Positions 11,064 to 13,014 of a DNA stretch of 64,000 bases are shown here, piece after piece; position 1 is the first letter of the stretch; every line of letters begins with the position of its first letter. The notes under the pieces were generated by a model that saw only the letters and a list, made by a program, of their open reading frames with translations, searched no databases and was not told the origin of the DNA. This stretch comes from Ralstonia sp. A12 (lineage in GTDB: Bacteria; Pseudomonadota; Gammaproteobacteria; Burkholderiales; Burkholderiaceae): NCBI RefSeq assembly GCF_000801955.1, contig NZ_JSZO01000014.1, positions 62,001-126,000 of the forward strand. The letters are read 5' to 3'. Position numbers and translations under genes: made by a program.

Positions 11064-11475
11064 GGTGGCTCGATGCGGCGGCGCTGGGGCGCGCGATGCC
11101 GCTCCAGCGCGGGAATCAGGGCGCGCTCGGCGCCCCTAACTCGATGGGCAATGACGATGTCCACTGCTGGCGTGTGCATTGCATAGCACCCCATCGGTAC
11201 CTCCCTGGAACGCGAATCGGTTGTGAGCCATGCGATCCGCCGCCCAGCAACTGGCCGAACGGTGATGATATTGCGCTGCAGTATGCCGCGATCCCATGTC
11301 AGCGCGGGGTTTGGGACGGGTTCTTGTGCAGCACCGCACGCCCGTTAATTGTTGATACTGAGAGAACAGTCTTTTCTTGGAATGGCTATTTATCCATGAT
11401 GGGCAACGATCTATTCTGCTCTCAAGCGCAACGAACTGAGCGCAACCGAACACCCAGGCACATAAGGAGCCGATC
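11064..11475. other. 412-bp intergenic region before the 11-residue-repeat protein
   Basis: No convincing gene. The forward frame open through 11096-11479 has no family signature, an unusual Cys/Trp/Pro composition and no ribosome site. Base composition drops toward AT around 11340-11400, where promoter elements of the repeat-protein gene should be, but I could not pick one -35/-10 pair with confidence. AAGGAG at 11464-11469 is the ribosome site of the gene that follows. Confidence 0.5.
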
Positions 11476-11934
11476 ATGAACACCCGTCTCGCTACCGCTT
11501 TCTCCCGTAACACCCTCCTGGCCCTGGTGGCCACCGTGTCTGCTTCCGCCGCACTGCTGTCGGCCCAACCGGCCGCAGCCGCGCAGACGAAGGCCGATCC
11601 GTACACGCAAGGTGCTGTCGCCAAGGCCGACCCGTACACCCAGGGCGCCGCCACCAAGTACGACGTCTATACGCAAGGCGCTGACCGCCAGGCTGACACC
11701 TACGGCTACCTGTCGTGGAAGGGCGACCGCTTTGACCCGTACACCCAAGGCGCCGTCGGCAAGGCTGACCCCTACACCGATGGTGCAATCGCCAAGGCTG
11801 ATCCGTACACGGACGGTGCTGCTGCCAAGTTCGACCCGTACACCCAAGGTGCTGACCGTCAGGCCGACACCTACGGTTACCTGTCGTGGAACGGCGATGC
11901 GTCGTATCCGAAGGACGCTGCTTCGAACGCCTGA
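11476..11934 (+). CDS. Secreted protein of tandem 11-residue DPYT(Q/D)GA repeats
   Basis: 152 residues. A classic signal peptide (basic MNTRLATAFSRN, hydrophobic core, cleavage near QPAAAA) exports it. The mature part is almost wholly repeat: DPYT(Q/D)GA or DVYTQGA starts at residues 41, 52 and 63, then DTYGYLSW at 74; after a 13-residue step the series restarts at 87, 98, 109 and 120 and ends with DTYGYLSW at 131. The period is exactly 11 residues, and the two blocks (3 and 4 units plus the capping DTYGYLSW) look like an internal duplication. No cysteine is present. Good ribosome site, own terminator. I do not recognise a described function; extracytoplasmic structural or binding role is a guess. 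Confidence 0.85.
   Translation: MNTRLATAFSRNTLLALVATVSASAALLSAQPAAAAQTKADPYTQGAVAKADPYTQGAATKYDVYTQGADRQADTYGYLSWKGDRFDPYTQGAVGKADPYTDGAIAKADPYTDGAAAKFDPYTQGADRQADTYGYLSWNGDASYPKDAASNA
11596..11889 (+). repeat. 33-bp-period coding repeat array
   Basis: DNA coding for seven D-(P/V)-Y-T-(Q/D)-G-A units and two D-T-Y-G-Y-L-S-W caps, 33 bp apart within each block and about 171 bp between caps. Synonymous differences between units are common, so selection seems to hold the protein sequence rather than recent copying alone. Confidence 0.85.
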
Positions 11935-11951
11935 TCGAGCGGCACCAAAGC

Positions 11952-11986
11952 AAAAGGGCCTTGGGTTTCACCCCAAGGCCCTTTTT
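11952..11986. terminator. Bidirectional terminator between the repeat-protein gene and lipA
   Basis: A 14-bp stem (AAAAGGGCCTTGGG, 11952-11965, with 11972-11985) and a 6-nt loop, flanked by A and T runs on the two sides, located between converging genes. Confidence 0.92.
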
Positions 11987-12012
11987 GTTTGTGCAGCGTT
12001 ACTGCTTGGCGA

Positions 12013-13014
12013 TCAGACCACGCCGGCTTCGTGCGCCTGCTGATCGGCGTGGTACGAGCTGCGCACCATGGCGCCCACGGCGGCGTGCGTGAAGCCCATC
12101 TCGTAGGCCTTCTCTTCGAACATCTTGAAGGTGTCCGGATGCACGTAGCGCAGCACCGGCAGGTGGTGGCCCGACGGCGCCAGGTACTGGCCGATGGTCA
12201 GCATGTCGATGTCGTGCTCGCGCATGTCGCGCATGACTTCCAGGATTTCCTCATCCGTCTCGCCCAGGCCGACCATGAGGCCGGACTTGGTCGGCACGTT
12301 CGGGTTGCGGGCCTTGAAGTCCTTCAAGAGCTTCAACGAGTGCGCATAGTCCGCGCCCGGGCGGGCCTGCTTGTACAGGCGCGGCACGGTTTCGAGGTTG
12401 TGGTTCATCACGTCCGGCGGGCATTCCTGGAGGATGTCCAGCGCCTTTTCCAGGCGACCGCGGAAGTCCGGCACCAGCACTTCGATGCGCGTGGAGGGCG
12501 ACAGGGTGCGCGTACGCGAGATGCAATCGACGTAATGCTGGGCGCCGCCGTCACGCAGATCGTCGCGGTCGACGCTGGTGATGACGACGTAGTTGAGCTT
12601 GAGCTGGGCGATGGTCTTGGCCAGGTTTTCCGGCTCATTCACGTCGAGCGGGTCCGGGCGGCCGTGGCCGACGTCGCAGAACGGGCAGCGGCGCGTGCAC
12701 TTGTCGCCCATGATCATGAACGTGGCCGTGCCCTTGCCGAAGCACTCGCCGATGTTCGGGCAGCTGGCCTCTTCGCACACCGTCACGAGGTTGTTGGCGC
12801 GCAGGATGTCCTTGATCTCGTAGAAGCGCGAGTTGCCGGTAGCGGCCTTGACGCGAATCCAGTCCGGCTTCTTGAGCTTCTCGGCCGGCACGATCTTGAT
12901 GGGGATGCGCGCGGTCTTGTCGAGCGACTTCTGCTTGGCCGTGGCGTCGTACGGCTTGTTCGACGGGGCGGAAGTGACGGCGCTTTCAGTAACGCCGGTG
13001 GCGGAATCGGTCAT
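12013..13014 (-). CDS. lipA: Lipoyl synthase
   Basis: 333 residues from ATG 13014, preferred over 13041 because GGAGAA sits 4-5 bases upstream. Radical-SAM enzyme that inserts two sulphurs into protein-bound octanoyl groups. The auxiliary cluster cysteines are C80, C85 and C91 ([12 protein letters not shown]) and the radical-SAM cluster is C106, C110 and C113 (CTRRCPFC). Together with lipB immediately upstream on the same strand it forms the de novo lipoylation pathway for the 2-oxoacid dehydrogenases and the glycine cleavage system. Confidence 0.97.

What the first reader, a model, noticed from the sequence alone, without database searches (positions are those of the whole stretch)
11476..11934. 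Secreted protein built on a strict 11-residue DPYT(Q/D)GA period
The sequence shows D-(P/V)-Y-T-(Q/D)-G-A at residues 41, 52, 63, then DTYGYLSW at 74, and again at 87, 98, 109, 120 with DTYGYLSW at 131. The 11-residue spacing is exact inside each block, and the two caps are identical over eight residues. It is exported, has no cysteine, a solid ribosome site and its own terminator. I know no described function for this repeat. Regular Asp/Tyr/Gly spacing could give a stacked or extracellular binding surface; that is inference.
Basis: partly seen in the sequence, partly recalled or inferred. Interest (0 to 1): 0.8.

Follow-up and report, generated by a model that had tools for sequence, protein, structure and literature searches.

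The report
Ralstonia branch of CopQ metal-stress proteins
The gene is real and encodes a small exported, probably unfolded repeat protein; it is a Ralstonia-only branch of the little-understood CopQ family, many of whose Cupriavidus members are switched on by toxic metals.

Summary
In detail: ORF 11476-11934 encodes 152 aa with seven D-(P/V)-Y-T-(Q/D)-G-A units and two DTYGYLSW caps at the stated residues. It is a conserved gene (16 of 16 Ralstonia genomes searched; dN/dS 0.06-0.10). The repeat is not undescribed. It is homologous to the CopQ-like proteins of Cupriavidus metallidurans (CopQ, CzcJ): small exported proteins with a published RDXXTDG repeat, many metal-induced, two (PrsQ1, PrsQ2) needed for silver resistance in one mutant. 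Their biochemistry is unknown. The window genome has at least 12 such genes. In 150 family genomes the motif is enriched only in Ralstonia and one sister genus, inferred to be Cupriavidus. The window protein fails the strict RDXXTDG motif (0 of 7 units), as do 8 of its 11 paralogs, so I call it a divergent branch. Its DRQADTYGY cap occurs in 14 of 14 Ralstonia genomes and 0 of 136 others. It shares with one paralog a palindrome, ATTGTT-N11-AACAGT: 31 of its 34 occurrences in 16 genomes lie upstream of these two genes. AlphaFold gives no fold (pLDDT 47), against a solenoid. Best guess: a disordered periplasmic stress protein, perhaps a weak cation buffer; that step is speculative.

The parts
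11476..11934 (+). CDS, 152 aa, divergent CopQ-like exported repeat protein
11476..11583 (+). probable Sec signal peptide (residues 1-36, ending PAAAA); cleavage site read by eye, no predictor run
   Evidence: sequence; helix 8-28 in the model
11596..11694 (+). block 1: three 11-residue units at residues 41, 52 and 63
11695..11718 (+). cap 1, DTYGYLSW (residues 74-81)
11734..11865 (+). block 2: four 11-residue units at residues 87, 98, 109 and 120
11866..11889 (+). cap 2, DTYGYLSW (residues 131-138)
11348..11370 (+). conserved palindrome ATTGTT-N11-AACAGT, candidate operator shared with paralog C24
11412..11417 (+). candidate -10 hexamer TATTCT inside the conserved GCAACGATCTATTCTG block; not mapped, and not reported by the consensus scan
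   Evidence: scan
11464..11469 (+). ribosome-binding site AAGGAG
   Evidence: sequence
11952..11985 (+). intrinsic terminator, 14 pairs, between this gene and convergent lipA

Best explanation
The gene encodes a divergent, Ralstonia-specific branch of the CopQ-like proteins. The signal peptide sends a largely disordered chain of repeated Asp-x-Tyr-Thr-(Gln/Asp)-Gly units to the periplasm. A regulator recognising ATTGTT-N11-AACAGT controls it together with one paralog. In the periplasm the many repeated Asp/Tyr side chains are proposed to act as a weak, many-site cation and envelope-stress buffer beside the efflux pumps. Shown by computation: homology, purifying selection, genus restriction, the shared upstream palindrome, no predicted fold. 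By eye: export signal. Inferred from relatives: metal or envelope-stress role and periplasmic location. Inferred from conservation: that the palindrome is an operator. Speculative: direct cation binding.
For: Homology chain: window protein to CopQ of CH34, E 6e-8 for the single comparison, and to CzcJ, E 2e-6; the window gene is found with paralog C23 at E 2.4e-12; paralog C20 is 62% identical to CopQ over 77 aa including the signal peptide. At least twelve such genes in the genome. Metal context of some paralogs: C8 opens an OEP-HlyD efflux operon with a perfect AgrR-type box; C20 follows a multicopper oxidase; the cap-bearing C34 follows NicO, ChrB and ChrA. NicO was found in the fetched flank of about 1.5 kb in 7 of 10 C34 orthologs. 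[quoted passage not shown] loss of silver resistance when prsQ1/prsQ2 are removed from mutant NA4S (PMC7380067 citing a 2019 paper, passages). Disorder: pLDDT 47; charge-hydropathy on the disordered side for 11 of 12 window-genome members and CopQ.
Against: The window gene lies beside lipA, not beside metal genes, and has no AgrR-type box: best match 4 mismatches, reached by 72% of shuffles; only C8 of the 12 members has a clear one, and CopQ's own best match has 3 mismatches (14% of shuffles). Of the other neighbours scanned (C23, C31, C1, C13, C11, C3, C12) none is an obvious metal gene. The presumed mature protein has no His, Met or Cys, so it is poor for soft metals. It fails the strict RDXXTDG motif, 0 of 7 units. 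NicO was absent near 3 of 10 C34 orthologs, and from 6 kb upstream in L034. CzcJ and CopQ were not found in a proteome that included metal-challenged CH34 (PMC11647595, passages). C12 and CzcJ fall on the folded side of the charge-hydropathy line. No expression data for this gene were seen. Low pLDDT on a 16-sequence alignment of similar repeats is weak evidence of disorder.
Confidence: 0.45

Rival explanations
1. It is a periplasmic regulatory partner that tunes a sensor kinase or efflux pump, as CzcI and CzcE are reported to do, and does not buffer metal itself.
For: Family members sit in czc, cop and RND-type gene clusters. CzcI and CzcE, in the same czc cluster as CzcJ, are reported to modulate Czc activity and regulation (PMC11580412, passage). 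PrsQ1 matters for resistance although its expression is unchanged (PMC7380067, passages).
Against: No sensor or pump gene is adjacent to the window gene, and no partner is known.
Confidence: 0.2
2. It is a secreted matrix or surface component used in biofilm.
For: Small secreted 'snf2 family' proteins of Variovorax paradoxus rise about 40-fold in biofilm (PMC7494200, passages). Repetitive Tyr/Gly/Asp-rich composition.
Against: The Variovorax sequences could not be compared here; in the samples searched, family homologs were found only in Ralstonia and one sister genus. An outer-membrane secretion signal was not sought.
Confidence: 0.12
3. The repeats form a folded solenoid or stacked binding surface.
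For: Exact 11-residue spacing inside each block.
Against: AlphaFold pLDDT 47, pTM 0.13, no strands or helices after residue 28; unit number and spacing vary between orthologs and paralogs.
Confidence: 0.05
4. Low-complexity reading frame without function.
For: No significant Pfam, NCBIfam or PDB match.
Against: dN/dS 0.064-0.100 against 5 orthologs; present in 16 of 16 Ralstonia genomes; conserved upstream block.
Confidence: 0.02

Closest known systems
CopQ (Rmet_6121) of Cupriavidus metallidurans CH34, pMOL30 cop cluster; matched here to RMET_RS30565 by position
   Same: Signal peptide plus repeated D-x-(Y/F)-(T/S)-x-G units; E 6e-8 for the single comparison.
   Different: CopQ has four RD..(T/S)DG units, His/Met in its spacers and about 13-residue spacing. 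The window protein has 7 units with Q in 5 of 7, 11-residue spacing, two DTYGYLSW caps, and no His or Met in the repeats.
CzcJ (Rmet_5975), pMOL30 czc cluster; RMET_RS30125, whose start fits the czcJ start sites listed in PMC9045368
   Same: Small exported-type repeat protein, E 2e-6 for the single comparison.
   Different: Beside czcE and metal-induced in print. Its upstream region has a 1-mismatch AgrR-type box; the window gene has none.
PrsQ1 and PrsQ2 of C. metallidurans NA4
   Same: Called CopQ-like, predicted small periplasmic proteins (PMC7380067, passages).
   Different: Sequences not compared here; prsQ2 is AgrR-controlled, prsQ1 is not bound by AgrR.
Variovorax paradoxus Varpa_0407 and Varpa_3832, 'secreted snf2 family' proteins
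   Same: Small, exported, unexplained (PMC7494200, passages).
   Different: Sequence relation untested; a lead only.

Membership tests
CopQ-like family (PMC2864759) | N-terminal signal sequence | tested here: inconclusive
   Residues 1-36 read by eye as a Sec signal ending PAAAA, similar in all 15 distinct proteins (window included); no signal predictor was available.
CopQ-like family (PMC2864759) | RDXXTDG repeated 3 to 4 times | tested here: not met
   0 of 7 units match RD..[TS]DG; 2 of 7 match D..[TS]DG; 7 of 7 match D.YT.G. CH34 CopQ and CzcJ have 4 matches each. Only 3 of the 12 window-genome members (C13, C8, C20) have any match.
CopQ-like family (PMC2864759) | Spacers of defined length between units | tested here: met
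   Spacing 11, 11, 24, 11, 11, 11.
CopQ-like family (PMC2864759) | Sequence homology to CopQ and CzcJ | tested here: met
   E 6e-8 and 2e-6 for single comparisons; bridged by C23 and C20. Repeat bias may inflate these values.
CopQ-like family (PMC2864759) | Restricted to Cupriavidus and Ralstonia | tested here: met
   Motif pattern 18-35 per genome in 14 Ralstonia, 36-75 in 13 genomes of g81 (inferred to be Cupriavidus), 0-5 in the other 123 of a 150-genome sample; C23 query 2 of 299 in a phylum sample. Samples only.
CopQ-like family (PMC2864759) | Induced by metals | not testable with these tools
   No expression data for this gene; no AgrR-type box upstream.
Solenoid repeat protein | Regular secondary structure per unit | tested here: inconclusive
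   No structure predicted, but the alignment was shallow.
SNF2 helicase (name given to small Variovorax proteins) | SNF2 ATPase domain | tested here: not met
   No such Pfam or NCBIfam match for the window protein.

The most novel reading that the evidence does not exclude
Ralstonia has moved a CopQ-type disordered repeat out of the accessory metal-resistance pool into its core genome: a capped two-gene set, one copy fixed beside lipA and one behind a LysR-type gene, under a LysR-type operator used for almost nothing else, serving an envelope function that is not metal efflux.
Probability: 0.3. Interest if true: 0.5.

Novelty: new variant of a known kind. Interest (0 to 1): 0.33.

Why it matters
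[quoted passage not shown] A member found in every Ralstonia genome searched, with a candidate operator shared with only one paralog, is a simpler genetic target than 12-21 possibly redundant copies. It also shows that the published RDXXTDG motif misses most of the Ralstonia members.

Tried and rejected
Pfam and NCBIfam gave nothing significant for the window protein (best E 0.34 and 1.9). Ten paralogs (all but C20) were scanned too; the only hit above a curated cut-off was PF11532 (HnRNP M nuclear localisation signal, 26.8 bits against 24) on C24, taken as a repeat artefact. PDB: none. Rfam, 11100-12100: none. Phages: no match. An AgrR-type box was sought in the window: 0 matches with up to 1 mismatch, and none convincing upstream of this gene. 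Fold searches and a second structure job were not run, because the model has low confidence. The Variovorax 'snf2' lead could not be tested. The loose pattern matched 107 of 120 order genomes, mostly background (up to 8 per genome against 43 in the window's own), and was tightened. Mijnendonckx et al. 2019 (cited in PMC7380067) is known only through that paper; the DOI tried for it, from recall, is not held.

Full report
What is there. ORF 11476-11934 (+) encodes 152 residues. Identity at lag 11 is 0.43, against a maximum of 0.24 at any lag of 1-29 in 5000 shuffles. A ribosome site (11464-11469) and a strong terminator (11952-11985) flank it.

It is a conserved gene. All 16 genomes of its genus have it. 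The genus is read as Ralstonia because the genome contigs relatives are titled so, apart from four loci of two records titled only Burkholderiaceae. LipA was found convergent with the gene in all 10 loci L020-L029 and in all 17 orthologous loci (L048-L063 and L066, which include second pieces of two genomes); L064, L065 and L067-L075 are other paralogs. Against five orthologs dN/dS is 0.064-0.100. Within the gene, the seven units show 64 silent and 16 replacement differences among 147 codon pairs. Ortholog length runs from 142 to 198 residues with changing unit number (25 rows, 15 distinct proteins, one row dropped).

It belongs to a multigene group. The own-genome search gave 17 matches at E up to 10, and reading the loci gave 12 genes, named here by contig: C6 (window), C24, C34, C12, C23, C31, C1, C13, C11, C3, C8 and C20. 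A degenerate motif pattern matched 43 times in the genome against 4 for the reversed control. In 150 family genomes a tighter pattern matched 18-35 times in each of 14 Ralstonia genomes, 36-75 times in each of 13 genomes of genus g81, and 0-5 times in each of the other 123. That g81 is Cupriavidus is inferred from size and from the named plasmid hits. With C23 as query, 2 of 299 phylum genomes matched, G000 and one g81 genome. In the plasmid collection the window protein hit 6 records, C23 18 and C20 19, all Cupriavidus.

The name of the group. On plasmid pMOL30 of C. metallidurans CH34 the hits are RMET_RS30565, inside the cop cluster, and RMET_RS30125, beside czcE. Gene order in PMC2864759 (passages) and start-site coordinates in PMC9045368 (passages) fit CopQ and CzcJ respectively. 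Translated here, each carries four RD-x-x-(T/S)-D-G units. [quoted passage not shown] PMC7563307 (passages) counts 21 copQ homologs in CH34, poorly characterized. PMC7380067 (passages) reports that PrsQ1 and PrsQ2 are needed for the silver resistance of mutant NA4S, and that prsQ2 is 507-fold up and bound by AgrR. PMC11580412 (passage) says CzcJ function is unknown.

How close the window protein is. It matches CopQ at E 6e-8 and CzcJ at E 2e-6 in single comparisons; C20 is 62% identical to CopQ over 77 residues. None of its 7 units meets RD..[TS]DG, and 2 of 7 meet D..[TS]DG. That failure is not special to this branch: only C13, C8 and C20 of the 12 members have any strict match. I therefore call it a divergent branch of the CopQ-like group rather than a plain CopQ member. 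The branch mark is the cap: the pattern for DRQADTYGY occurs in 14 of 14 Ralstonia genomes and in 0 of 136 other family genomes, including 0 of 13 in g81. In the window genome three genes carry it: C6, C24 and C34.

Regulation. The upstream regions of orthologs share ATTGTT-N11-AACAGT, a T-rich stretch, ATTTAT and GCAACGATCTATTCTG, and the C24 group has the same elements. Over 16 Ralstonia genomes the palindrome occurs 34 times exactly; 31 lie upstream of the two loci (16 of the window gene, 15 of C24, by comparing coordinates) and 3 are a different site in G193, G212 and G266. The reversed controls gave 6 in all, 0-2 per genome. The genome without a C24 site, G267, is 88% complete; the gene on its contig C32 proved to be of the C34 type. 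C34 genes lack the palindrome (in the window's genome; in G267). In the C24 group the ATTGTT arm overlaps the end of a LysR-type gene, so its conservation there may be partly coding. In G193 the third site lies in the gap between a divergent LysR-type gene and a Ribonuc_L-PSP (RidA-type) gene, the usual place for a LysR-type operator. TGTT-N11-AACA also fits the T-N11-A form of LysR-type sites; that form and that placing rule are recalled, not from a call. The regulator of the window gene is unknown.

Metal context. C8 is the first gene of a run with OEP and HlyD (CusB-type) genes and has a perfect match to the AgrR consensus ATKACANNNNTGTMAT upstream. C20 follows a multicopper oxidase. C34 follows NicO, ChrB and ChrA on the same strand. 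NicO was detected in the fetched flank of about 1.5 kb in 7 of 10 C34 orthologs (L065, L067-L075): 217-235 bp from the gene in six, farther in L065. It was absent in L068-L070, and from 6 kb upstream in L034. Neighbours scanned for C23, C31, C1, C13, C11, C3 and C12 were not obvious metal genes. The window gene itself has no metal neighbour and no AgrR-type box; of the 12 members only C8 has a clear one, and CopQ's best match has 3 mismatches.

Structure. AlphaFold2 on 16 aligned sequences gave mean pLDDT 47, pTM 0.13, and one helix at residues 8-28, the signal. Charge-hydropathy places 11 of 12 members and CopQ on the disordered side, C12 and CzcJ on the folded side. A solenoid is unlikely, though the alignment is shallow.

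Mechanism. Shown: a repeat protein under strong selection, genus-wide, homologous to CopQ, with a shared upstream palindrome; export signal by eye. Inferred: periplasmic stress role by kinship. Speculative: cation buffering through repeated Asp/Tyr. Against it stand the lack of metal neighbours, of an AgrR-type box and of soft-metal ligands, and the absence of CopQ and CzcJ from a proteome that included metal-challenged CH34 (PMC11647595, passages).

Novelty. Text searches for DPYTQGA, and for DTYGYL, DPYTDGA, YTQGADR, CopQ homolog and CopQ-like, found no paper holding this branch's sequence strings in the held library; one search returned only the three Cupriavidus papers PMC7380067, PMC2864759 and PMC7563307. 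Subscription papers are mostly not held. Verdict: a real and conserved new variant of a known, unexplained family.

Noticed in passing
L018:2446-5285 (-): Paralog C8 opens a run of OEP and HlyD efflux-type genes, overlaps the next gene's predicted start, and has a perfect ATGACAAGTTTGTCAT box starting 116 bp upstream.
   Followed up: partly
L010:5266-9715 (-): Cap-bearing paralog C34 lies downstream of NicO, ChrB and ChrA; NicO adjacency recurs in 7 of 10 orthologs.
   Followed up: partly
L011:5297-5685: Paralog C12 has ten units, part of them in an 81-bp array (3.8 copies, 86% matches), which looks recently expanded.
   Followed up: no
G193:C4:879412-879434 (L095:1213-1235); also G212:C9:99325, G266:C42:16084: A third palindrome site conserved in 3 of 16 genomes; in G193 it lies between a divergent LysR-type gene and a Ribonuc_L-PSP gene. 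The other two contexts were not read.
   Followed up: partly
G000:C3:43470-43496 (-) (L096:1171-1197): One-mismatch copy of the longer operator in the window's genome; it lies inside overlapping ORFs on both strands, with no clear promoter position.
   Followed up: partly
PMC7494200, Varpa_0407 and Varpa_3832: Small secreted 'snf2' proteins up in Variovorax biofilm; relation to this family untested.
   Followed up: partly
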